Positions 16,673 to 47,278 of a DNA stretch of 47,703 nucleotides are shown here, in pieces (the stretch's first letter is position 1; each line of letters starts with the position of its first letter). The notes below the pieces were generated by a model. The model made no database searches. It worked only from the letters and a program-made list of their open reading frames with translations, and had not been told where the DNA came from. The position numbers and the translations under genes were made by a program. Source of the DNA: Nitrospira sp. LK70 (GTDB lineage Bacteria; Nitrospirota; Nitrospiria; Nitrospirales; Nitrospiraceae); the NCBI GenBank assembly GCA_011090425.1, contig PHGD01000059.1:1-47703 (forward strand), given 5' to 3'.

Positions 16673-17092
16673 CGTAACATGGGCGATTGCTCAGGAGATA
16701 GTCGAACAGGGCGCTGAATGGCGGAAGCCATCGAATCGGTCGGTCGTGGAACTGTCGAAGCTAAGGAGAAGGATCGACAGAACGGAACGTGTGATACACG
16801 GACCGCAATCATCACAATCAATGTCGAAGCCCCGATGAAATAGACCATCGGTCAGAGCCCAGAGTACTTTCCCTCCTGAGCCCAAGATCGCCATGCGGCG
16901 GTCTTGGGCTTTTTATTGTCGGCCGATATGGAATGGATAGGTCAATGTCGCCGATGTTCGAGTGATTCGGGAGTCATAGAGGAGAGGAATTTGATCACTT
17001 GATGGTGAGGGTTTTGTACGCTCAATCGTCTTCTATATGCAGTGGTGCCGTTGGGGATGTTCAGCGTCGACTCAGAAACAAGGAATCGCAAC
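16673..17092. other. 420-base gene-free region with a strong terminator
   Basis: No protein gene is supported. A small hairpin at about 16834-16853 (CCGATG/CATCGG) precedes the strong plus-strand terminator at 16879-16915. No plus-strand gene lies upstream, so an undetected short RNA may end here, but I found no convincing promoter for it. The right part (16920-17092) must hold the exbB promoter; I saw no clear boxes or Fur site. Confidence 0.35.
16879..16915 (+). terminator. strong intrinsic terminator
   Basis: A 14-base-pair stem (AGCCCAAGATCGCC with GGCGGTCTTGGGCT, one G-U pair) with an ATGC loop is followed by TTTTTA. Only the plus strand has a T-run. It lies before the exbB operon and would insulate it from upstream transcription. 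Confidence 0.75.
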
Positions 17093-17518
17093 ATGGATGT
17101 GCTTAGAGAAGTGGTGGATTACGGAATCATCGGACTACTCGTGATGCTCAGCCTCTGGGCCGTGGCCGTGGCGGTAGAACGGTGGCTCTATTATCGACGC
17201 GTGAGCCTCAATCAGTTCGAGAATATTCAGATCATGGAAATAGACCTGACAAAACGGCTGGTCGTGATCGGAACGGTGGCCGCTAATGCGCCGTACATTG
17301 GTCTCTTGAGGACCGTGTTGGGGATTATGTTGACGTTCCATACGATGGGCACGTCGCGAACGATGGCGGTCAGTGCCATTATGGTCGGGTTAAGCCTGGC
17401 GCTCAAGGCGACGGCCATTGGGCTGTTGGTCGCGATCCCGTGCGTCGTGCTGAACAACATCCTCCGGCGTCGTGTCTCTGAACTGCTGACATTGTACAAG
17501 GTGCAGCATGGAGCGTGA
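17093..17518 (+). CDS. exbB: ExbB, TonB-system proton channel subunit (copy 1)
   Basis: ExbB forms the pentameric inner-membrane channel that, with ExbD, uses the proton gradient to energise TonB. The 141-residue protein is the short ExbB type with three membrane helices (about 9-27, 57-82, 98-122) and the conserved GTVAANAPYIGLL stretch. Compared with copy 2 at 42226-42657, two glycines in the conserved core are Arg here: residue 73 (GLLRTVLG for GLLGTVLG) and residue 89 (GTSRTM for GTSGTM). The ATG at 17093 follows AAGGA and gives the same N-terminus as copy 2; an upstream GTG extends the frame without homology. It overlaps exbD by 11 bases. Confidence 0.9.
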   Translation: MDVLREVVDYGIIGLLVMLSLWAVAVAVERWLYYRRVSLNQFENIQIMEIDLTKRLVVIGTVAANAPYIGLLRTVLGIMLTFHTMGTSRTMAVSAIMVGLSLALKATAIGLLVAIPCVVLNNILRRRVSELLTLYKVQHGA

Positions 17519-17882
17519 GCTGAATCAGATCAATGTTATTCCCCTCGTGGACGTGATGCTGGTCCTTTTGGTCATTGTCTTGACCACGGCGACGTTCATA
17601 TCGACGGGACAAGTGCCGGTCGAGCTGGCGAAGGCAAAAGAAGTCAGCGATCGCCAGGACGTGCCTCTGATGATTACCTTGACGTCCGATGGCCGACTGT
17701 TTCTGAACGATCAACCAGTTCCGGACGATGGGCTGGCGATTGTCTTGAACGATCATCCTCGCGAGTCGGCGGTTGTATTGCGGGCTGATCGAGTGACCGT
17801 CTTGGAGCGGTTCGTGAGAGTGATCGACGAAGTGAGGGGACTTGGATTTAAGCAGGTGAGTCTTGAGGTCTTGCGATCATGA
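17508..17882 (+). CDS. exbD: ExbD, TonB-system accessory protein (copy 1)
   Basis: The 124-residue protein has one membrane helix near residues 10-30 (INVIPLVDVMLVLLVIVL) that contains the essential membrane Asp of ExbD (Asp13, in PLVD), then a periplasmic domain ending GLGFKQVSLEV. It pairs with ExbB for proton-driven energisation of TonB. The gene overlaps exbB by 11 bases and tonB by 4 (ATGA), so the three are a tight operon. It is clearly similar to the second ExbD at 41868-42242. Confidence 0.92.
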   Translation: MERELNQINVIPLVDVMLVLLVIVLTTATFISTGQVPVELAKAKEVSDRQDVPLMITLTSDGRLFLNDQPVPDDGLAIVLNDHPRESAVVLRADRVTVLERFVRVIDEVRGLGFKQVSLEVLRS

Positions 17883-18709
17883 CGACCATTGAGCTCAGTC
17901 AGGTCGGCGTGAGTGCCGTCGTCGACACGAGCGCGGTCGGCGAGCAGGCCCGGGGGTGGATGGTCTCCGTGCTGCTTCACGGCGTGGCTGTGGCGGGTGC
18001 GCTCTTCCTCATGACGGAAATCGACAAGCCGATTCTGCCGGAGTCGTTTCACTGGGACGTCTCGATGGTAGAAGCACCGACGCAATCTGAAACGCCTCCG
18101 GCCGAACCGGTGGTTCCCCCTCCTCCTTCGCCCGTCACGCCGAAGCCACCCGTCAGACCGACACCCAAACCGATCGCTCAACAACCTCAAACAATGACAC
18201 AACAGGAGTCTGTGGTCACCAACGCAGAGCCGGTGATGGAATATGCTCCCGTAGAGACGGCTGAAAATCAGGTCGTCACATCGGAAGCCGCCGTCGCACA
18301 AACGGTCGAATCATCAACCCCGCAGACTGTTGAACAGGCATATCCGGTCGAATCCCAAGGACCTGCTGTGGAGCATCGAACGGTTCAATATCGGCAGGTT
18401 CAGTATCGTCGAACCCAAACGGACTACGGCTGGCTCCGCGACATGCTTTGGGAACGGATCGAAGAACTAAAGCGCTATCCGGCGTTGGCAAGAACCAGCC
18501 ATTGGGAAGGCAGAGTCGTCGTCCAGGCAGTCATTAAGGCGGACGGGACAGTGGGAGATCTCAGCGTCGCTGAAAGCTCAGGCCACGCGTTGCTGGATGA
18601 GGAGGCGTTGGTGGTCATGAAGAAAGCATCCCCGTTGACGCTCAAACATCAATTGGAGAGGTCGCAGCTTACCATTCTGGTTCCGATCAGTTATCGATTG
18701 GACGAGTAA
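17879..18709 (+). CDS. tonB: TonB energy-transducing protein
   Basis: TonB links the ExbB/ExbD motor in the inner membrane to outer-membrane receptors. The 276-residue protein has an N-terminal anchor helix (about 27-46, with the conserved SVLLH motif whose His matters for coupling), a Pro-rich periplasm-spanning segment (about 72-115), a Val/Thr/Gln-rich linker and the C-terminal receptor-binding domain from about 190 (LKRYPALARTSHWEGRVVV, then SSGHALLDEEAL). It is the only tonB in the window and probably serves both ExbBD pairs and the receptor at 24.6-27.2 kb. Confidence 0.92.
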   Translation: MTTIELSQVGVSAVVDTSAVGEQARGWMVSVLLHGVAVAGALFLMTEIDKPILPESFHWDVSMVEAPTQSETPPAEPVVPPPPSPVTPKPPVRPTPKPIAQQPQTMTQQESVVTNAEPVMEYAPVETAENQVVTSEAAVAQTVESSTPQTVEQAYPVESQGPAVEHRTVQYRQVQYRRTQTDYGWLRDMLWERIEELKRYPALARTSHWEGRVVVQAVIKADGTVGDLSVAESSGHALLDEEALVVMKKASPLTLKHQLERSQLTILVPISYRLDE

Positions 18710-19445: not shown

Positions 19446-19631
19446 ATGAATGAGTCTCGAGCGCCGGCCGAATCGGGAGTGGACGTCCGGTGCCACTGCG
19501 GGAAGCTGGTGGCTCGCTGGCAAGGTGAAGGCCTGGTTATCAAGTGTACGCGTTGCAGACGGTTCGTCCGAATTCATGCGTCCGCCATCGGCGGCTTGCC
19601 GCCTCACGGCCTCATGTCGCGTCCACGGTAA
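19446..19631 (+). CDS. Com-like small zinc-ribbon protein (copy 1)
   Basis: The 61-residue protein has the spacing CxC-X15-CxxC (Cys16, Cys18, Cys34, Cys37) in RCHCGKLVARWQGEGLVIKC followed by TRCRRFVRI. This is the pattern of Com, the small zinc-finger protein of phage Mu that binds the mom mRNA leader and switches on its translation. Similar orphan genes are known outside phages. No other phage gene is near, so a cellular RNA- or protein-binding role is possible but unproven. GAGGTGAG precedes the ATG. It stands between the tonB operon and the PepSY gene. A second copy with the same spacing is at 39998-40174. Confidence 0.7.
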   Translation: MNESRAPAESGVDVRCHCGKLVARWQGEGLVIKCTRCRRFVRIHASAIGGLPPHGLMSRPR

Positions 19632-20991: not shown

Positions 20992-21571
20992 ACTTGGACT
21001 TTCCTGCCACTGCAACCCTGGACCCTCTTCCCCTGAAACCGTTTGGCGAGTAGCGAAACCAGGAGGCTACCGTTCTTCACGAACAAAGCCCACGGAATCG
21101 CGATGCCCAAGGGCTTTATCTTCAGCGGAGGCGGATCGTTTACGACGGATCGGTTTGAACCGCGACGGCAAACACCAGTACCAATGACTCTCACCGAGAC
21201 GGTCTATATGAGTGCAAGGCTTGGAGTCTGACATTCATCATTTCCCGTAGCGTATCGTGTCACGCGCCATCGTTCCTCCTGTTTCGCTCGTTCCCATTGT
21301 GAAGAACTCTAGCTTGCGCCAGATAACTGGTCAGCACCAAGTTGCCGAATCCTGCGTTGGATGTACGGAACCCGACCACCTGCTGCTTCTTCGGCGAGCC
21401 TCGCACCCGCTTGGTCACGGTGGGGCCGCAGTTCTGATGGGATGCTCAATGTCGAATAGCTGGACTGTTAGAAGCAAGGTACGGTTTTCACTTGAGACAG
21501 AAATACGTTCAGACTCGCGAGCGAAATCTGCTATCAGAGTCCTGCAACAACTCAAGCTCGAGTCTGAGGGG

Positions 21572-21600
21572 TTGACAACGTATCGTAACTATGATATTGA
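21572..21600 (+). promoter_or_regulatory. promoter of candidate small RNA
   Basis: A perfect TTGACA (21572-21577) is followed after 17 bases by TATTGA (21595-21600). Transcription would begin near 21607, and a strong terminator ends at about 21727. Confidence 0.5.
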
Positions 21601-21606
21601 GAACTC

Positions 21607-21727
21607 ATATCAAGGAGTTGAGTGCCGGGGGACGAACCCCTATCCCTGATTAGCAGTCGCGGAAACCGAGAGGCCAGAGGTCGCATTGACCGGAGCCCAA
21701 GGCGTCATGAGATGCTTTGGGCTTTTT
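21607..21727 (+). ncRNA. candidate 120-nt small RNA
   Basis: This short transcript is inferred from a promoter directly upstream and an intrinsic terminator at its end, with no reading frame of note. It can fold into a GGGG/CCCC hairpin (about 21626-21639), a GGTC/GACC hairpin (about 21679-21691) and the terminator stem. I compared it by eye with the consensus of common riboswitches (TPP, SAM, cobalamin, cyclic-di-GMP) and 6S RNA and saw no match. It may act as a trans-acting RNA or as a leader that attenuates the small genes starting at 21914. Transcription is unproven. Confidence 0.45.
21694..21727 (+). terminator. intrinsic terminator of the candidate small RNA
   Basis: A 13-base-pair stem (AGCCCAAGGCGTC with GATGCTTTGGGCT, two G-U pairs) with an ATGA loop is followed by TTTTTGTTTT. 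The outer arm is nearly the same as that of the terminator at 16879-16915. Confidence 0.75.
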
Positions 21728-21913
21728 GTTTTGGGGCATAGATCCGAAAGCAGTGCTCCGCACTGTCGCTGTAGGGTGTTGTTGGTTGGGTTGGATGGAG
21801 AGTCGCCATCGGGTCGAGGACAAAAATCATCCAGGCCGGAATCTCGGTAAGGGGATTGGCCCTGGCAAGGCAGGGACAAGAACCGGTTCATACAAGCCAG
21901 AGGAGAAGCAATC

Positions 21914-22081
21914 ATGACATCAATCTGTAAACGATGCGGAGGTTTTCTGGTAGGGGAGCAAGCGGTTGATTACTACCAAACGCGATGTTGGAAATGTGTC
22001 AACTGCGGTTGGTACCGCAGGGAGACTCAAATGCGTTCAAGCCGACCCATCACATTGATGAATCGTCGGGTCGGCAAATAG
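21914..22081 (+). CDS. 55-residue double-CxxC zinc-ribbon protein
   Basis: The peptide reads MTSICKRCGGFLVGEQAVDY and continues YQTRCWKCVNCGWYRRETQM, with Cys5, Cys8, Cys25, Cys28 and Cys31. Two CxxC knuckles 16 residues apart form a zinc-ribbon fold as seen in small DNA-, RNA- or protein-binding factors. GAGGAG stands eight bases before the ATG. The tail is basic. I know no named family for it. It opens a set of three tiny genes (this one, 22115 and 22463) leading to the ECF sigma-factor gene. Confidence 0.6.
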   Translation: MTSICKRCGGFLVGEQAVDYYQTRCWKCVNCGWYRRETQMRSSRPITLMNRRVGK

Positions 22082-22627: not shown

Positions 22628-22830
22628 AGGAACCATGGACCTTGGGACCTTGCCGTATTGATGGCCGTGACCTCGGGGCTTTCATGTCTGTGTTCGGGTC
22701 TAGTTGAAAGCACTCGGTATCTAGCAATCAGCACTAGCCGAGGACCGTGCTCGTTGCAGACCGGACCTCGATGTATCAAGGGACACCGTGGGGTTTTTAT
22801 TTTACACAAAGGATTTTGAGGAGATACACG

Positions 22831-23427
22831 ATGGGGACCCAGGGACTGAATCTTGTTGGAATAGAGTCCATGGTATCGCGCGATGCTTGCGGGTCGTCGG
22901 GTACCTCTCTAACGCTCACGTATGAGCAGATCGCAGGTTTGTTTCATCAGTACCGCGAGGAACTCATCCGCCGTCTTGTCGGTATGGTGAGATCGCACGA
23001 GACAGCTGCCGATCTTGTGCAGGATACGTATGTGCGGCTGTTGCGGCTGGGCGGTCGGCAGGCCGTCGAGCAACCGCGCGCCCTGCTTCACCGGATTGCG
23101 GCCAACTTGGCGATCGACCATTTACGAAAAGAAAAGCATCCGGTCCATGCCGCCGATGGTTTGGATGCCGCGATGGCGGTGCCCAGTCATGTGCCGTCTC
23201 CGGAACGCGAGTTGCTCGGCAAACAGCGGTTTCGAATCGTCCTTCAAGCGATTGAACGTTTGCCCTCCCGAACCCGCGAAGCCTTCCTGCTTTGCCGAGT
23301 GTATGGGTACTCCTATCAAGAGATCGCGACCCGCATGAATATCTCTGAAAGCGCTGTGGAGAAGTTGCTGATGCGCGCACTGGATCGGAGCTGTGAAGCG
23401 CTCGACGTGTTGAACAACGCTGAGTGA
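22831..23427 (+). CDS. ECF RNA polymerase sigma factor, FecI-like
   Basis: The 198-residue protein has the sigma2 region (residues about 30-100: LFHQYREELIRRLVGMVRSH, LVQDTYVRLL, LHRIAANLAIDHLRKEKH) and sigma4 (about 130-190: IERLPSRTREAFLLCRVYGY, then YQEIATRMNISESAVEKLL, the -35 recognition helix-turn-helix). FecI-type sigma factors direct transcription of iron-transport genes after a signal from receptor and FecR. GAGGAG eight bases before the ATG decides this start over a longer upstream frame. The next genes are fecR and the transducer-type receptor, the classic surface-signalling set. Confidence 0.9.
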   Translation: MGTQGLNLVGIESMVSRDACGSSGTSLTLTYEQIAGLFHQYREELIRRLVGMVRSHETAADLVQDTYVRLLRLGGRQAVEQPRALLHRIAANLAIDHLRKEKHPVHAADGLDAAMAVPSHVPSPERELLGKQRFRIVLQAIERLPSRTREAFLLCRVYGYSYQEIATRMNISESAVEKLLMRALDRSCEALDVLNNAE

Positions 23428-23527: not shown

Positions 23528-24493
23528 ATGCGTCCATGTGAAGAAGAAGCCAGGCTTCGGAAGGAAGCCGTAGCGTGGGTTGTTCGGTTGCAGAACGAGG
23601 GCCTGTCGCCGGAAGAGCGACGGGCATTCAATGCGTGGCACGAGCGGAGTCCAGCGCATGCGCTGATGTTTCGTAAGGTTTCGAGCGTTTGGGACGGTCC
23701 CGATTTGCGCGCGGCTGCGGAAGCGGCTGTGCAGGCCGATCCTTCCTCGTTCAAGAGAAGAACTACGGTGCGTCGATGGTGGCCGATTCCAGTCGCCGCT
23801 TGTGTCATCCTAGCCATTGTCGTCGCGGTACATCTCGATGTTATTACGCGATGGCGGGCCGATTATCGGACCGAAGTCGGCGAGCGCCGCACCATCGAAT
23901 TGCCGGACCGGTCGATTGTCACCCTCAACACTCTATCAGCGATCGAGCTTTTGTTTGACGCCTCGACACGACGAATCCGTTTGCTCAAAGGGGAAGCGCT
24001 CTTCAACGTCCGGCATGATCCGGCTCATCCGTTCATCGTAGAAAGCGCCGACACCGTTACGCAAGCTATCGGAACGGCTTTTGTCGTGAGAGCGGAGCCG
24101 GATGGTGATCAGGTTATCGTCATCGAAGGCGCGGTCGAAGTCGATGCAATCAGTGCTGGACGAGAGGCTCATCCACCGGCGATCGCGACTTCCGGATCGC
24201 GGATCGATATGGTGCAAGGCCGGATGGGGGAACCGTACCAGGTCGATGTCTCAGCGGCTTCAGCGTGGGCGCGAGGGCGGCTCGTGGTCAACGGCGTCCC
24301 ATTTACCCAGGTGATCGACGAATTACGTCGGTACTATCCTGGCACGATCGTCTTGTGGACCCATGCCATCGACGAGATGCGGGTGACCGGGACCTATAAC
24401 CTTGATGACCCTGCAAGAGTCTTGTCTCTTCTGACCCAGACCCTTCCGATCCGACAGGTCAGCTTGACCGATCGCCTTGTGATTCTTTTCTAA
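23528..24493 (+). CDS. fecR: FecR-family transmembrane sigma regulator
   Basis: The 321-residue protein carries the N-terminal cytoplasmic FecR_N domain (about 5-55: LRKEAVAWVVRLQNEGLSPE, AFNAWHERSPAHALMF) that holds the sigma factor, one membrane helix at about 84-105 (WWPIPVAACVILAIVVAVHL), the FecR periplasmic domain (TEVGERRTIELPDRSIVTLN, ALFNVRHDPAHPFIVES) and a C-terminal STN-like domain from about 250 that contacts the receptor's signalling domain. It lies 100 bases after the sigma gene and before the receptor. The receptor is frameshifted, so the circuit may be silent in this strain. Confidence 0.9.
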   Translation: MRPCEEEARLRKEAVAWVVRLQNEGLSPEERRAFNAWHERSPAHALMFRKVSSVWDGPDLRAAAEAAVQADPSSFKRRTTVRRWWPIPVAACVILAIVVAVHLDVITRWRADYRTEVGERRTIELPDRSIVTLNTLSAIELLFDASTRRIRLLKGEALFNVRHDPAHPFIVESADTVTQAIGTAFVVRAEPDGDQVIVIEGAVEVDAISAGREAHPPAIATSGSRIDMVQGRMGEPYQVDVSAASAWARGRLVVNGVPFTQVIDELRRYYPGTIVLWTHAIDEMRVTGTYNLDDPARVLSLLTQTLPIRQVSLTDRLVILF

Positions 24494-24590: not shown

Positions 24591-25028
24591 ATGAAGAGGG
24601 AGGAGCGAGATAACGGGCCTGTTTCGCGAGGCGACGATCGAGACCGCCGATGGTTTCGCGCGTGGTTGCGGGATTTGTGTCGGCGCCTATTGATTCTCGC
24701 ACTCATCGTGACGGTCGCCGACGACCTATTCGCGCAACAGAGCGTTCCGCCTGGGACAAAAAGCGCTCCGATTGAGTTCAACATTTCTGCGCAACCGCTC
24801 GGCTCCGCGCTGAACGCCTTCGCCGAAACGACTGGCTGGCAGGTCAGTGTGCCGACCGAGCTGGTCGCCGGTCGGACCTCATCCGGGATCAGTGGAGCCC
24901 ACCAGCCTGAAGCTGCGCTGCAGGCGCTGTTGGCCGGGACAGGACTCACCTATCGTTTGACCGAGCAATGCCGTCACGCTCGTGCCGGGAGCCACAATCC
25001 CGACTGTGGCCTCGCCGGCGATCGGTGA
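24591..25028 (+). CDS. TonB-dependent transducer, N-terminal STN part (frameshifted fragment)
   Basis: The 145-residue frame encodes a signal-like hydrophobic segment (about 32-48) and an STN signalling domain (FNISAQPLGSALNAFAETTG, ELVAGRTSSGISGAHQPEAA, LLAGTGLTYRLTE). STN domains of FecA-type receptors reach into the periplasm to FecR. After LTYRLTE the frame loses homology (QCRHARAGSHNP). The expected continuation NAVTLVPGATIPTVASPA is present one base out of step, beginning near 24967. The rest of the receptor follows in that other frame, so this is the front part of one split gene, 24591-27198. Confidence 0.8.
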   Translation: MKREERDNGPVSRGDDRDRRWFRAWLRDLCRRLLILALIVTVADDLFAQQSVPPGTKSAPIEFNISAQPLGSALNAFAETTGWQVSVPTELVAGRTSSGISGAHQPEAALQALLAGTGLTYRLTEQCRHARAGSHNPDCGLAGDR

Positions 25029-27198
25029 AAGTCAGGCCATAACGTCTGGATCGCAGGCTGGGTCGATGGATACCACCATGGCGAAGCCCATCAAGGTTTC
25101 GGAAATCGTAGTGAAAGAAAAACGTGAGCGGAGAGACCCCTATACCGTCGATGAAGTCTCGAGTGCGACCAGGATTCCCGTGCCGGTGCACGACACCCCT
25201 CGATCGGTCGAGGTCGTCACCAAGCAGGTCATAGAGGATCAACGGGTCATCCGCATGAACGATGCGCTTCGAAATGTGAGCGGAACATTTCAGTCCAGCA
25301 CGCAAGGTGGTCAAGGCGGCAGTTTCATGATTCGTGGGTTTGTGTCGGATTTGAATATCTTTAAGAACGGGTTCCGTGACGATAGTACGTTCAGCTCACG
25401 AGCCCAACGCGATATCCTCAACCTTGAGAGTATCGAGGTGATAAAAGGCCCGCCGTCCTATTTATTCGGTCGATCCGATCCAGGCGGGGTCATCAATCAA
25501 ATCACAAAGGCGCCGTTGAGAAATCGGTACTACTCGGCGGAACTGATTTTCGGCAATTACGATCTGTATCGCCCCACCATCGACATCGGGGGGCCGTTGA
25601 ACGAGAGCAAGACCCTCACCTACCGGTTCAATGGCTTATATGAAGCGGCGGGCAGCTATCGAGACGGTGTGCGCTCGGAACGGATCTTTCTCGCACCGAC
25701 CTTTGGATGGGAACTTGGACCGCGGACGACGTTTCGTTTTGAGGGTGAATATCTGTATAACAGCACACCCATCGATCGTGGCTTAGTAGCCGTTGGTAAT
25801 GGGGTTGCATCGATTCCCGTCAGTAGTTTCTTGGGCGATCCGACAAGAAAGGATGTGGTGAATCAAGGTAAGGCTACGCTGACGTTATTGCACGACTTCA
25901 ACGATCTGTTCAGATGGCGTACCGCGTTCAGAGGAGCGGTGGCCGGTGACAACTATTTCAGTCGGGAATCCAATGTCCTGGTCGGAGACGAAGTAGATGG
26001 CATCCTGAACCTGGCACAATACAGAATTCCAACCCTCGCGCAGAGTTACTACTTGCAAAATGAGGTGCACGGTAGCTTCTCAACCGGACCGTTCAAACAC
26101 AAATCGATTGTCGGTGTAGAGTTAGGGCGCGAAGTCGCTACCGCCTCGGTGTCTAGTGATTTTGGCGGCGATATATCCATTCCAGGGGCCTTTAGCTACA
26201 TCAATATCTACAACACTGCTGATCGGTTGTTCTTGGATACGCCCCTGACCAAATTCAGCGATACGAAGAATGTCAACGATATTCTGGGTTTCTATTTTGG
26301 AGATCATGTGAGTCTTCTGGATAATCTCCATCTCCACGCAGGCGGCCGGTTTGATTACTTTAAGCAAAAGCTCGTCAATTATCCGAACGACCTTGATCCG
26401 AATCAAACTGAGGACAGCCAAACCGATCTCGCGTTCAGCCCATCGGTTGGTTTGACCTATCAGCCATGGAAGCCCATCGCACTGTTCGCCAACTATACGG
26501 AATCCTTCGCGCCGCAGGCCTCGGGGTCTAGAAGCATTACCGGAACCTTGTTTGAACCGGAGCGCGGCAAGGCCGTTGAAGGAGGCGTCAAGTTCCAGTT
26601 CTTCGAAAGTCGGTTGCGTGGGAGCATCGCCGCCTTCAACATCAAGAAGACGAATGTGTTGACAGCCGACCCTCTGAACGGATTCGCGTTTTCAGTGGCG
26701 ACCGGTGAACAGCGCAGCCAAGGCGTTGAATTCGACGTGGCGGGACGATTAGCGCCGGGTTGGGATATCATCGCCAACTATGCCTATATCGACGCACGGA
26801 TCACGCAAGATCTCTTGTTTCTCGTAGGCAGCCGAGTCCCCAATTCCGCCCTGAACCAGGGCAGCCTCTGGACGACTTATTATATCCAGAACGGTCCGTT
26901 GAAAGGCCTTGGCGCGGGAATCGGGATGCAAGCGCAAGGCAAGCGCAACGGAGTATTCCAATGCACGGATCCGGCCAATTGCCAGGCGCCATTCGAACTT
27001 CCTGGGTATGTCCGCATGGACGGTGCCCTGTACTACCGAAAACCGGAACTATTCAGCAGAACGAACTTGCTCGCTGCCGTGAACTTTACCAACCTCTTGG
27101 ATCAGCGGTACTTTACGGGTACCCAAAACTTCAGGGAGATCATTTATACGGGCGCGCCCTTCACGGTGATCGGCTCCGTGAAGCTGGAGTTTTTCTAG
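24982..27198 (+). CDS. TonB-dependent siderophore receptor, plug and barrel
   Basis: The frame encodes 738 residues: a plug domain (about 60-180: VPVHDTPRSVEVVTKQVIED, GGQGGSFMIRGF, LESIEVIKGPPSYLFGRSDP, GGVINQITK) and a 22-strand beta-barrel ending in the outer-membrane signature FTVIGSVKLEFF. It belongs to the ferric-siderophore receptors of the FpvA/FhuE/FecA kind; the ligand is unknown. The GTG at 24982 is not a natural start: no ribosome-binding site or signal peptide precedes it and the true N-terminus is in the upstream STN frame. Without correction the barrel could not be exported, so the gene is broken or the sequence has a one-base error near 24966. Confidence 0.88.
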   Translation: MPGATIPTVASPAIGESQAITSGSQAGSMDTTMAKPIKVSEIVVKEKRERRDPYTVDEVSSATRIPVPVHDTPRSVEVVTKQVIEDQRVIRMNDALRNVSGTFQSSTQGGQGGSFMIRGFVSDLNIFKNGFRDDSTFSSRAQRDILNLESIEVIKGPPSYLFGRSDPGGVINQITKAPLRNRYYSAELIFGNYDLYRPTIDIGGPLNESKTLTYRFNGLYEAAGSYRDGVRSERIFLAPTFGWELGPRTTFRFEGEYLYNSTPIDRGLVAVGNGVASIPVSSFLGDPTRKDVVNQGKATLTLLHDFNDLFRWRTAFRGAVAGDNYFSRESNVLVGDEVDGILNLAQYRIPTLAQSYYLQNEVHGSFSTGPFKHKSIVGVELGREVATASVSSDFGGDISIPGAFSYINIYNTADRLFLDTPLTKFSDTKNVNDILGFYFGDHVSLLDNLHLHAGGRFDYFKQKLVNYPNDLDPNQTEDSQTDLAFSPSVGLTYQPWKPIALFANYTESFAPQASGSRSITGTLFEPERGKAVEGGVKFQFFESRLRGSIAAFNIKKTNVLTADPLNGFAFSVATGEQRSQGVEFDVAGRLAPGWDIIANYAYIDARITQDLLFLVGSRVPNSALNQGSLWTTYYIQNGPLKGLGAGIGMQAQGKRNGVFQCTDPANCQAPFELPGYVRMDGALYYRKPELFSRTNLLAAVNFTNLLDQRYFTGTQNFREIIYTGAPFTVIGSVKLEFF

Positions 27199-35845: not shown

Positions 35846-36538
35846 TCACCGCTGAGGTGTTCCTTCTACATAGGTGGTTGCTGTTTCTCCCATCAGTTCG
35901 ACCAAGAGATCAACGACAAAGGGATCGAATTGGGTTCCGGAGGCCACTCGCAGGATTCGGAGCGCGATACGATCGCGCAAAGATCGGTCGTGGACATGGG
36001 GAATCCGAATAGCCTCGAACGCGTCCGCGACGGCGAGAATCCTCGCGCCCAGTGGGATGAATTGTCCCCTCAGGCCGTAGGGATAGCCTGATCCATCCCA
36101 CCGCTCATGGTGATGGGCGATCAGGATGGTCGCGTCACGAAGGAATGAAAAAGGCTCGAGCAAGGTCGCTCCGAGTCGCGGATGATTTTGAATGACCACG
36201 TAGGAGTCCGGATCTTTGGCCTCTCGCCCGGTTTGGAGGTGAGACGGAAGCATCAGGAGACCGATGTCGTGGAGCAAAGCGGCCAGTTTCAATTGATGCA
36301 AGAGCTCGTCGCAGAGGTTCGCAGCAAGCCCCATACGAACCGCAACAGCCGCCGTTTCTTGACCATGCCCTGCTTGCCACGGCAGAAGCCGATCCAGTTC
36401 CTTCGTCACTTGTCGAACCAGAATACTCTCCAGATCGCGTCGCGATGTTGCCGGAATATGAAGGCGGTCGACCTTCTGCAGCATGCCTTGAATCTTCAGC
36501 ACGGCCGGTTCAACCGAATCCGCTATGTGGACCTGCAT
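35846..36538 (-). CDS. HD-GYP domain protein (cyclic-di-GMP phosphodiesterase-like)
   Basis: The 230-residue protein is nearly all HD-GYP domain. HDIG (90-93) supplies the first metal ligands and HHERWDGSGYP (143-153) the second His pair plus the GYP-loop equivalent, here GSGYPYGL. It has the residues expected for hydrolysing cyclic-di-GMP, but no receiver or sensor domain, so control must come from the N-terminal 50 residues or from expression. The ATG at 36538 is chosen because GGAGGTGAT, a near-perfect anti-16S match, lies just before it; a longer frame begins at 36574. A terminator stands immediately upstream, so it has its own promoter or relies on read-through. Confidence 0.85.
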   Translation of the reverse strand: MQVHIADSVEPAVLKIQGMLQKVDRLHIPATSRRDLESILVRQVTKELDRLLPWQAGHGQETAAVAVRMGLAANLCDELLHQLKLAALLHDIGLLMLPSHLQTGREAKDPDSYVVIQNHPRLGATLLEPFSFLRDATILIAHHHERWDGSGYPYGLRGQFIPLGARILAVADAFEAIRIPHVHDRSLRDRIALRILRVASGTQFDPFVVDLLVELMGETATTYVEGTPQR

Positions 36539-36560
36539 CGTATCACCTCCGTAAAAATGA

Positions 36561-36592
36561 AGAGCCCAAGACACTGTCGTGACCTGGGCTCT
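36561..36592 (-). terminator. terminator of the FMN-protein operon
   Basis: Read on the minus strand, AGAGCCCAGGTCAC pairs with GTGTCTTGGGCTCT (two mismatches, four-base loop) and is followed by TCATTTTT. It lies 50 bases after the stop of the membrane-protein gene. Its outer arm is shared with the terminators at 16.9 and 21.7 kb. Confidence 0.65.
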
Positions 36593-36641
36593 GGGTGAAT
36601 AACCGCTGGCCGCTGGAACAGTTGTGTGGACGATCTGAAGC

Positions 36642-37196
36642 CTACGATTCTTGCGGTCCTTTCCCTCCCATCAGCGGTTGTCCGAGCACCCACATCTCAT
36701 ACAATGGGACAATCAGCATCACGAGAAAACTGATGGTCATCAGCGTATCACCGATCAACATCGAGAGGGCGAAAATAGGGGAGACGTAGCTGATCAACCA
36801 TGGCGACAGAAGGTCGAGAATCACACCGCCGAAGCCCGCCCATGTCAGGATCGTTTTCAGCCTGTGGCTCGCACTGGTCAGATACATCACGTGGATCAAA
36901 ATCATGAACACGACCGGCATCGTAAACAGATGAAAATGGGTGATCTCCGCCAGTTCTCGAAACGACATCGGTTCTCCGAACGTTGCATCAGACCCTCGAT
37001 AGTGATCGGCGACCCCTTGCGGTGACAGTCCCGTCATGCTATGTGCCCAAAAAAACGAGAAGCAAAAACCGGCAAACATCAACAGCAGGAAGAACGTATA
37101 CAACGACCGGATATGGCGATCGGAGTCACGGAGCCTGAATTTCTGATTGAAGTTACGCATGCCGGGACGCTGGGTCCGCCCGAAGTTAGTTTCCAA
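36642..37196 (-). CDS. four-helix His-containing membrane protein, partner of FMN-binding protein
   Basis: The 184-residue protein has four predicted membrane helices: about 31-51 (LYTFFLLLMFAGFCFSFFWA), 88-107, 113-137 and 141-168. His87, His89, His102 and His111 cluster around the second helix (THFHLFTMPVVFMILIHVMY) and could bind heme b or quinone. I do not know a characterised member; similar proteins are found beside FMN-binding domain proteins. It overlaps the FMN-binding gene by 11 bases, so the two are translated together. The simplest hypothesis is an electron path from the quinone pool through this protein to the periplasmic flavin. That function is inferred from context. Confidence 0.65.
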   Translation of the reverse strand: METNFGRTQRPGMRNFNQKFRLRDSDRHIRSLYTFFLLLMFAGFCFSFFWAHSMTGLSPQGVADHYRGSDATFGEPMSFRELAEITHFHLFTMPVVFMILIHVMYLTSASHRLKTILTWAGFGGVILDLLSPWLISYVSPIFALSMLIGDTLMTISFLVMLIVPLYEMWVLGQPLMGGKGPQES

Positions 37197-39865: not shown

Positions 39866-39997
39866 CGGTATCCTCCCTTATGAATAAGGTTGTGGTCTGA
39901 CTCGGGACTCGGTGGTCTCTGGCCTTTAAGCAAACAAAAGAGCTGTACTCGTGTAATGGAGGTGTGGTCGCTGCGCTTCCGTTCGCACAGTGGAGCA

Positions 39998-40174
39998 TCA
40001 TGTTCCGGTCCCCCAACCTTCAATCGAGGAAAAGGGAATCACGACGATGCGCTTGCACCGTTTGCACTTCAGCTCCAGTCCTTGCTCGCACACCTTGGCG
40101 ATCAATTGTCCGCATTCACAGCGAGTTTCCTGGCTCTTGACCCGATGGCGTTCGGGCACGTGCGTCATAATCAT
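39998..40174 (-). CDS. Com-like small zinc-ribbon protein (copy 2)
   Basis: The 58-residue product, too short for many gene finders, reads MIMTHVPERHRVKSQETRCE and continues CGQLIAKVCEQGLELKCKRC. Cys19, Cys21, Cys37 and Cys40 give the same CxC-X15-CxxC spacing as the copy at 19446, the pattern of the phage Mu translational activator Com. A second ATG two codons in is possible. It is the first gene after a good promoter (40227-40255) and is followed 130 bases later by the porin, so it is well placed to act on its own operon's mRNA; that idea is untested. Confidence 0.7.
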   Translation of the reverse strand: MIMTHVPERHRVKSQETRCECGQLIAKVCEQGLELKCKRCKRIVVIPFSSIEGWGTGT

Positions 40175-46666: not shown

Positions 46667-47101
46667 TCAATGACGGCAGCGAGAGCAGAGCCCGTAGAGC
46701 TCGAGGCGGTGAGTTTGGATGGCAAAGCCGTTCCGCGAAGCCACTTCTTCCTGAAGACGCTCAATGTCGCAGTTCTCGAATTCCACTATTTTCCCACAGC
46801 CTGTGCAAATAAGATGATCATGATGGCCCTTATGCGACACATTGTCGTACTGGGTTTGTGTACCGAAGTGCCTGGCCTGGGCCAGACCCGCTTCGCAGAA
46901 GAGATTGAGCGTGCGGTAAATGGTCGCGAGGCCCAGGTGTGGATCCTTACGCGCCAGCTGGTGGTACATCGCTTCGGCCGTGATGTGTTCCTGCTTCAGA
47001 AAGGCATCGAGGATCAATTCACGCTGCCGCGTAAATTTGAGCTGGTGCTTCCCAAGATGCTCCTTCAGGACCCCCATTTCTTTGGCATGTTTCGTCATCA
47101 T
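46667..47101 (-). CDS. fur: Fur-family metal-responsive repressor
   Basis: The 144-residue regulator has the N-terminal winged helix (LKEHLGKHQLKFTRQRELIL, GLATIYRTLNLFCEAGL, the recognition helix) and the C-terminal dimer/metal domain with HHDHLICTGC (93-102) and CSRC (139-142). These give the His-rich regulatory site and two CxxC structural-zinc pairs. With Fe(II) bound, Fur represses iron-uptake genes; Zur or PerR roles cannot be excluded, but the neighbouring ferric transporter favours Fur. The open frame reaches 47236, beyond its own promoter. TAGGAGG before the double ATG at 47101 and the promoter position fix the start. Confidence 0.92.
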   Translation of the reverse strand: MMTKHAKEMGVLKEHLGKHQLKFTRQRELILDAFLKQEHITAEAMYHQLARKDPHLGLATIYRTLNLFCEAGLAQARHFGTQTQYDNVSHKGHHDHLICTGCGKIVEFENCDIERLQEEVASRNGFAIQTHRLELYGLCSRCRH

Positions 47102-47128
47102 GATCAGACCGAGCCTCCTAGATGGAGA

Positions 47129-47157
47129 ATTAAAGACGAAACTGAGCAGCCGGTCAA
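47129..47157 (-). promoter_or_regulatory. promoter of the fur-fbpABC region
   Basis: On the minus strand TTGACC (47157-47152) and TTTAAT (47134-47129) are 17 bases apart. Transcription would begin near 47122, 20 bases before the fur ATG. No clear Fur box overlaps it. Confidence 0.65.
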
Positions 47158-47278
47158 GAGTGTCTTCGTCGAATGGATAGCCATCTCCAATTCCCTTTGA
47201 CGATCGCTTTCCCGGCTGTCTATAGTGGAGCCCCACGGCTTTACGACCGTGATTCCTGATGGTGCTTTGACGACACCT

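What the first reader, a model, noticed from the sequence alone, without database searches (positions are those of the whole stretch)
21572..21727. Candidate 120-nt small RNA with promoter and strong terminator
In a 920-base gene-free region a TTGACA-17-TATTGA promoter sits about 120 bases before a T-rich terminator. The interval has no reading frame but several stable hairpins. It matches no riboswitch consensus I could recall. It precedes a string of tiny genes and the ECF sigma operon.
Basis: partly seen in the sequence, partly recalled or inferred. Interest (0 to 1): 0.55.

Follow-up and report, generated by a model that had tools for sequence, protein, structure and literature searches.

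The report
Iron-gene RNA switch, probably Com-controlled
The stretch is not a lone small RNA but one copy of a widespread, apparently undescribed RNA off-switch (a small hairpin fused to a transcription terminator) in front of iron-uptake genes of Nitrospira and relatives, and a tiny zinc protein related to a phage RNA-binding regulator is its likely partner.

Summary
The unit is not a stand-alone sRNA. It is a 5' leader: a Fur-like promoter box, a small hairpin P1 (GGC-CAGA-variable stem-(C)AGA-GCC), and an intrinsic terminator that reuses P1's 3' strand. Related elements stand just upstream of ECF sigma, ExbB, TonB, TonB-receptor, Bfd-like, AraC and HD-domain genes (204 distinct cores; 38 of 148 Nitrospirota genomes). 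All four copies in the own genome lie in this 47.7-kb iron island. Helices covary; no Rfam family matches; Hfq was not found.

The same genomes encode a Com-family zinc ribbon, related to phage Mu's RNA-binding activator of mom: both in 37 genomes, element only in 1, Com only in 2, neither in 108. P1 also occurs, without a terminator, between com and the next gene (15 of 21 gaps). The rest mostly hold sites close to Mu Com's published SELEX motif.

Best reading: a Com-like protein binds P1 and lets RNA polymerase pass the terminator. Shown: family, structure, context, co-occurrence. Inferred: binding, antitermination, Fur control. Nothing was measured.

The parts
21572..21600 (+). promoter TTGACA-17-TATTGA
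   Evidence: read; conserved in homologues; not reported by the consensus scan
21592..21612 (+). Fur-like inverted-repeat box TGATATTGAGAACTCATATCA overlapping the -10 region
   Evidence: that Fur binds it is inference
21607..21732 (+). leader RNA (start inferred from the promoter)
   Evidence: inference
21670..21699 (+). hairpin P1: GGC-CAGA-GGUC/GACC-GGA-GCC
21692..21732 (+). intrinsic terminator whose 5' arm reuses GCC of P1
21914..22081 (+). 55-aa ORF with two CxxC motifs, first gene after the leader; the same type follows 17 of 204 cores
   Evidence: no Pfam family
22738..22808 (+). degenerate second copy of the element, directly upstream of the ECF sigma gene
   Evidence: R1 37.8 bits, E 7.5e-6; not found by R2 or R3
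22831..23427 (+). ECF sigma factor
   Evidence: Pfam
23528..24493 (+). FecR-like anti-sigma regulator
   Evidence: Pfam
24982..27198 (+). TonB-dependent receptor
   Evidence: Pfam
16853..16924 (+). element copy upstream of ExbB
   Evidence: R1 60.3 bits, E 1.9e-11
17093..17518 (+). ExbB
   Evidence: Pfam
17879..18709 (+). TonB
   Evidence: Pfam
19446..19631 (+). Com-like zinc ribbon 1, in the ExbB-TonB cluster
36549..36615 (-). element copy between two genes, upstream of an HD-domain gene
   Evidence: R1 46.4 bits, E 5.6e-8
35846..36538 (-). HD_5 domain protein, ATG 10 nt after the element
   Evidence: Pfam; distance
39897..39926 (-). P1 hairpin without terminator, between Com-like 2 and a porin-like gene
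39998..40174 (-). Com-like zinc ribbon 2
46667..47236 (-). Fur-family regulator
   Evidence: Pfam FUR, E 1.8e-34

Best explanation
The stretch is a transcription attenuator in the 5' leader of a Fur-associated iron operon. RNA polymerase first makes hairpin P1. If nothing holds P1, its 3' strand (AGAGCCC) refolds into the intrinsic terminator and transcription stops after about 120 nt. A Com-family zinc-ribbon protein, encoded in the same island (19446-19631 and 39998-40174), binds the purine internal loop of P1, blocks the base of the terminator and lets transcription run on into the iron genes. The P1 copy between com and the porin-like gene is a second site, laid out like the Com site upstream of mom in phage Mu. 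Shown: the conserved family, both folds with compensatory changes, the gene context, Com-family membership of the protein at profile level, and co-occurrence and adjacency of com and P1. Inferred: that Com-like binds P1, that binding prevents termination rather than promoting it, and that Fur binds the box.
For: Family and context: R1 finds four copies in the 4.7-Mb own genome, all in this window. In the phylum sample 43 of 148 genomes have a hit at E<=0.01, 38 after removal of five (see Tried and rejected). 204 distinct cores, in order of downstream gene: HD 62, ECF 20, small zinc ORF 17, DUF5122/CCP 17, AraC 14, ExbB 12, TonB 9, Bfd-like 8, TonB receptor 8, others 17, unassigned 20; HD start codons lie a median of 13 nt after the element. 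Fur-like boxes within 200 nt upstream of 66 of 201 elements, against 5 of 4020 shuffles. Structure: terminator and upper stem covary; the lower helix covaries once com-porin sites without a terminator are added (GC 23, AU 6, GU 4). RNA cut at GAGCCC forms the lower helix with P>0.5 in 99 of 183, against 24 of 183 with shuffled inner stems; at full length the terminator wins in 182 of 183. Com: both in 37, element only 1, Com only 2, neither 108 of 148; 51 of 70 com genes have a same-strand element within 6 kb. All 15 A4 members match PHROG families named 'translational regulator' and gpCom; profile comparison with Mu Com E 2.9e-5, probability 74%. P1 sits in 15 of 21 com-porin gaps; a SELEX-like Com motif in 6 of 21 against 0.04 expected (PMC6483171, abstract and passages). 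A Chloroflexi MAG and a Deltaproteobacteria MAG with elements also have a com gene beside them.
Against: No binding or transcription data. Com could co-occur only as a member of the same operons; other members were not tested the same way. Single Com-like proteins score below Pfam's Com cut-off (best E 0.0057, 7 of 15), and no NCBIfam Com model matched. P1 has CC-N1-GAG, whereas Mu Com's SELEX motif is CC-N2-3-GAG in a hairpin loop. Elements without a detected com: G162, G200, G289 (weak hit), G399. 19 of 70 com genes have no same-strand element within 6 kb in the list used. HD-type elements (60) show no Fur-like box and lie between genes. P1's lower helix in the ExbB copy of this window is broken.
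Confidence: 0.55

Rival explanations
1. A ligand-sensing riboswitch: P1 is a tiny aptamer for iron, haem or another small molecule, its base competes with the terminator, and com is just a fellow gene of the same operons.
For: Conserved internal loop next to an expression platform, paralogues upstream of genes of one theme, mutually exclusive folds. The Fur-like boxes fit an iron signal.
Against: About 25 nt with a variable apical loop is very small for an aptamer. P1 also occurs without any expression platform right after com genes. Presence tracks com.
Confidence: 0.2
2. A Fur-repressed trans-acting small RNA like RyhB or PrrF, ending at the terminator, that spares iron by pairing with other mRNAs.
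For: Promoter under a Fur-like box and a terminator about 120 nt later; copies in clusters.
Against: Elements lie directly upstream of genes in conserved spacing; the part between promoter box and P1 varies from about 8 to 138 nt and is not conserved; no Hfq in the own genome; the HD and com-porin copies are between genes. Targets were not searched for.
Confidence: 0.1
3. A Com-controlled element, but acting in the other direction or at another step: Com-like binding frees the terminator, or acts on translation or RNA stability as in com-mom, with the terminator a plain insulator between genes.
For: Mu Com acts on translation by remodelling mRNA (PMC6483171). The com-porin copies have no terminator. 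HD-type elements lie about 25 nt after a stop codon.
Against: P1 and the terminator share a strand in the elements parsed, which is hard to explain if the terminator is only an insulator. Many copies are far from the ribosome-binding site.
Confidence: 0.15

Closest known systems
Phage Mu com-mom regulation (Com zinc-finger protein and the mom mRNA hairpin)
   Same: Com-family zinc ribbon; com gene next to its candidate target; GA-containing motif on both sides of a short variable stem
   Different: Chromosomal, with several target operons of iron uptake; target fused to a terminator; motif spacing differs; role in translation not shown here
Protein-controlled antiterminators overlapping a terminator (BglG/LicT RAT, PyrR, NasR/ANTAR; recalled)
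   Same: A small hairpin overlaps the 5' arm of an intrinsic terminator
   Different: Other hairpin sequence and other protein family; no Rfam family of this kind matched
RyhB/PrrF-type Fur-regulated sRNAs (recalled; the search listing shows such papers)
   Same: Fur-like box over the promoter, short terminated transcript
   Different: Paralogous leaders in front of different genes; no Hfq found

Membership tests
Com protein family (phage Mu Com) | Sequence similarity to Com profiles | tested here: met
   phrog_6417 15 of 15 (best 3.5e-6), phrog_13819 gpCom 15 of 15 (best 6.3e-4); hhalign to Mu Com E 2.9e-5; but Pfam PF10122 only 7 of 15 and below its cut-off
Com protein family (phage Mu Com) | Four zinc-binding cysteines in two knuckles | tested here: met
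   CxC..CxxC columns conserved and aligned with Mu Com
Com protein family (phage Mu Com) | Sequence-specific RNA binding and activation | not testable with these tools
   needs protein and RNA
Com target RNA (SELEX motif of PMC6483171) | Bipartite GAGNNCC N2-3 GAGNNCC / CC N2-3 GAG around a 3-4 nt variable stem | tested here: inconclusive
   motif with spacer 2-5 in 6 of 21 com-porin gaps against 0.04 by shuffles; the main P1 has CC-N1-GAG instead
RyhB/PrrF-like trans sRNA | Stand-alone gene, not a leader of the next gene | tested here: not met
   paralogues upstream of start codons
RyhB/PrrF-like trans sRNA | Fur-regulated promoter | tested here: inconclusive
   Fur-like box conserved; the classical 19-mer scan is not discriminating in the window
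RyhB/PrrF-like trans sRNA | Hfq dependence (recalled for RyhB, PrrF) | tested here: not met
   no PF17209 in the own genome, controls ring
Known riboswitch or RNA family in Rfam 15 | Covariance model match above gathering score | tested here: not met
   none on the element in the window or in the loci scanned
Riboswitch (as a mechanism) | Direct ligand binding | not testable with these tools
   needs in-line probing
Transcription attenuator | Two mutually exclusive folds, one an intrinsic terminator, in a 5' leader | tested here: met
   by prediction and covariation; termination itself not measured

The most novel reading that the evidence does not exclude
A phage-type RNA-binding regulator (Com) has become the master of a chromosomal iron regulon in Nitrospirota, controlling many operons by antitermination at a common hairpin, stacked on Fur control of the promoter and carried with its hairpin into other phyla.
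Probability: 0.4. Interest if true: 0.85.

Novelty: new variant of a known kind. Interest (0 to 1): 0.7.

Why it matters
If true, it adds an RNA-level layer to iron control in the main nitrite- and complete ammonia-oxidising bacteria, gives the Com family a role outside phage DNA modification, and would be a compact protein-controlled antiterminator with many natural variants. It also turns small ORFs with no Pfam hit into candidates with a testable function. Even if Com is not the partner, a terminator-linked hairpin family in 38 of 148 sampled Nitrospirota genomes with no Rfam entry is worth annotating.

Tried and rejected
Trans sRNA as the main function: not favoured (leader context, no Hfq). 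Leader-peptide attenuation: not favoured, since in L025 the promoter box is about 8 nt from the element, leaving no room for a reading frame. K-turn: considered for the GA-rich loop and dropped by inspection; the register does not fit. c-di-GMP-I and 5S rRNA: weak R1 hits in L135 and L145 are 3' parts of c-di-GMP-I riboswitches and L143, L144, L146 are 5S rRNA (Rfam).

Rows dropped: five genomes with weak hits were removed before the co-occurrence count: G117 and G100 (c-di-GMP-I), G091 and G125 (5S) and G063 (score only, not identified). The E<=2e-4 line was drawn after seeing the table. With all 43 the table is 37 both, 6 element only, 2 Com only, 103 neither. One search also left out the 5S row of G039, the row G118:C8:32226 and two reverse-strand partial rows. 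Pattern hits L148, L184, L226 were dropped as chance; L202 was kept in the counts but is doubtful. L168/L261 (Oscillospiraceae): the match overlaps the end of a small cysteine-rich coding frame and is probably coincidence. Of the 35 rows of A5, 13 are com-porin sites; L293 and L296 were left out. In one search two picks (L297, L302) are spurious and four gaps gave none. Many loci come from the pattern, which itself imposes GGCC, AGAGCCC and GGGCT, so only the stem changes there are evidence. Some genomes occur in both collections; duplicates were removed only when the core was identical.

The Fur PWM was trained on 10 boxes of the small-ORF, Bfd and ECF classes, so counts in those classes are partly circular; in the classes not used for training (ExbB, TonB, AraC, multicopper oxidase, imelysin) 24 of 36 have a box. 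The 600 random-stretch controls were contaminated by true boxes, hence the shuffles.

Literature: searches and 114 of the open PMC library showed no description of this element or of a chromosomal Com regulon. PMC11109978 and PMC8632094 (term search of the text only) contain no 'Nitrospira'; PMC12342949 (passages) treats only guanidine riboswitches.

Full report
Check of the observation. The promoter hexamers (21572-21577 and 21595-21600, spacer 17) and the terminator (21692-21725 plus U tract) are in the sequence. The single sequence is not striking: five terminator-like sites against 3.5 expected, no promoter by the consensus rule, folding z -2.2. Homologues decide. A DNA search of 59 genomes from the genus and order finds the stretch at 86% identity in two genomes and separately conserved promoter and terminator blocks in nine more, often in several copies close together. 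The promoter block carries an inverted repeat, TGATATTGAGAAnnnnTATCA.

The element. Aligning copies showed a core GGCC-A-GAG ... CC-A-GAG-CCC followed by a terminator. A covariance model, R1, finds four copies in the 4.7-Mb own genome, all in this window: 21668+, 16853+, 36549-36615- and a degenerate one at 22738+. In a phylum sample 43 of 148 genomes have a hit at E<=0.01; after removal of 5S rRNA and c-di-GMP-I cross-hits and one unidentified weak hit, 38. A pattern scan of one genome per species returned almost only Nitrospira and Nitrospirales records, among them 'Candidatus Nitrospira defluvii' and N. moscoviensis. Rfam has no family for it.

Structure. In the 26-sequence alignment, terminator and upper stem give 94.8% standard pairs, against 83.7% in column shuffles and at most 46.6% when slid. 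The diverse 27-sequence set gives 82 cells with changes on both sides, against 25 shuffled. Parsing 206 distinct elements shows a hairpin with a purine internal loop, GGC-CAGA-stem-(C)AGA-GCC; 100 fit a 4x3 and 106 a 4x4 loop, and the stem varies widely. The lower helix does not covary among leaders, because its GCC is also the terminator's. It does covary when hairpins without terminator, described below, are added: pair 4-29 is GC in 23, AU in 6, GU in 4. RNA ending at GAGCCC is predicted to form this helix in 99 of 183 cases, against 24 of 183 with shuffled inner stems; at full length the terminator wins in 182 of 183. The two folds exclude each other.

Context. 204 distinct cores precede, in order, HD-domain (62), ECF sigma (20), small zinc-motif ORF (17), DUF5122/CCP (17), AraC (14), ExbB (12), TonB (9), Bfd-like (8), TonB-receptor (8), a protein with the motif YEVIEV (7), porin-like (6), Com-like (2), multicopper oxidase (1) and imelysin (1) genes; 20 are unassigned (names). 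A Fur-like box lies within 200 nt upstream of 66 of 201 elements, against 5 of 4020 shuffles: small ORF 17 of 17, TonB 8 of 9, Bfd-like 7 of 8, ExbB 9 of 12, ECF 14 of 20, AraC 5 of 13, HD 0 of 60, DUF5122/CCP 0 of 17, TonB receptor 0 of 8. HD-type elements mostly lie about 25 nt after an upstream gene (41 of 62 were printed), so they are intercistronic. The window is an iron island: Fur family protein, an ABC transporter (solute-binding, permease and ATPase families; iron as substrate is my inference), ExbB, TonB, ECF/FecR/receptor and ApbE.

The partner. Small zinc ribbons recur beside the element. Fifteen were aligned (A4). Each of the 15 matches PHROG families annotated translational regulator (best 3.5e-6) and gpCom (best 6.3e-4); comparison with Mu Com from its public record gives E 2.9e-5, probability 74%, with the cysteines aligned. 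Pfam's Com model is reached only below its cut-off by 7 of 15, and NCBIfam gives none. In the same 148 genomes Com-like occurs in 39: both in 37, element only in 1 (G162), Com only in 2 (G045, G171), neither in 108; Fisher p 2.6e-31, and outside the own family 6, 0, 2, 108 with p 9e-9. Relatedness makes these p values too small. G064 has both, and G074 of the same genus has neither. Of 70 com genes 51 have a same-strand element within 6 kb, most at about 3.4 kb (the HD operon) or under 110 nt. The own genome has two com genes, both in this window.

Sites without terminator. Between com and the following porin-like gene 15 of 21 gaps hold P1 without a terminator, with the lower helix GAC/GUC in 9, GGC/GUC in 4, GGU/GCC in 1 and AGC/GCU in 1. 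In five genomes of another family the gap holds one or two sites of the form GAG-NN-CC-N3-5-GAG-NN-CC. That is close to the bipartite motif NGAGNNCC(N)2-3GAGNNCC selected for Mu Com in vitro, where the two cores sit in loops on both sides of a variable 3-4 nt stem and the GA dinucleotide is crucial (PMC6483171, abstract and passages). The motif with spacer 2-5 is in 6 of 21 gaps against 0.04 in shuffles. A hairpin-only model, R3, finds in the whole own genome four window sites and one new one, C180:793-823, about 40 nt before the start of a signal-peptide-bearing ORF; three of the window sites were training rows. Outside the phylum, a Chloroflexi MAG has com ending a few bases before an element, and a Deltaproteobacteria MAG has one com 1.1 kb before two elements; both contigs are short, so binning error is possible. 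Four further genomes with an element or weak hit (G162, G200, G289, G399) gave no Com-like match.

Mechanism and standing. The best-supported reading is a transcription attenuator whose antiterminator hairpin is the target of a Com-like protein. What is shown is sequence, structure by covariation, context and co-occurrence. Binding, direction of the effect and Fur occupancy are inferred. A riboswitch with com as a bystander, a Com effect on translation, and a trans sRNA remain possible, in that order. I found no description in the open literature searched.

Noticed in passing
window 21061-21128 +: Weak R1 match (21 bits, E 0.1), perhaps a decayed element, shortly after the PepSY_TM gene.
   Followed up: no
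L306 793-823 (own genome contig C180): P1 hairpin without terminator about 40 nt before the start of a secreted or outer-membrane-like ORF, a possible further target outside the island.
   Followed up: partly
window 21914-22081 +: 55-aa ORF with two CxxC motifs and no Pfam family, conserved after the leader in many genomes.
   Followed up: partly
window 36645-37196 -: Membrane-type ORF without Pfam family just upstream of the HD element; an open frame of similar length precedes most HD-type elements.
   Followed up: no
L047 1271-1450 -, L069 136-405 -: Very small Bfd-like [2Fe-2S] ORFs follow the element in several genomes.
   Followed up: partly
L168 7571-7629 and L261: Oscillospiraceae contigs with a look-alike at the end of a small cysteine-rich coding frame that runs into a terminator; probably coincidence.
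   Followed up: partly
L135, L145: c-di-GMP-I and cobalamin riboswitches close together in other Nitrospirota genomes.
   Followed up: no
L136, L138, L142 (genome G188): Low-scoring divergent hairpin-terminators; in L142 a Com-like gene lies directly upstream, so these may be true distant members.
   Followed up: partly
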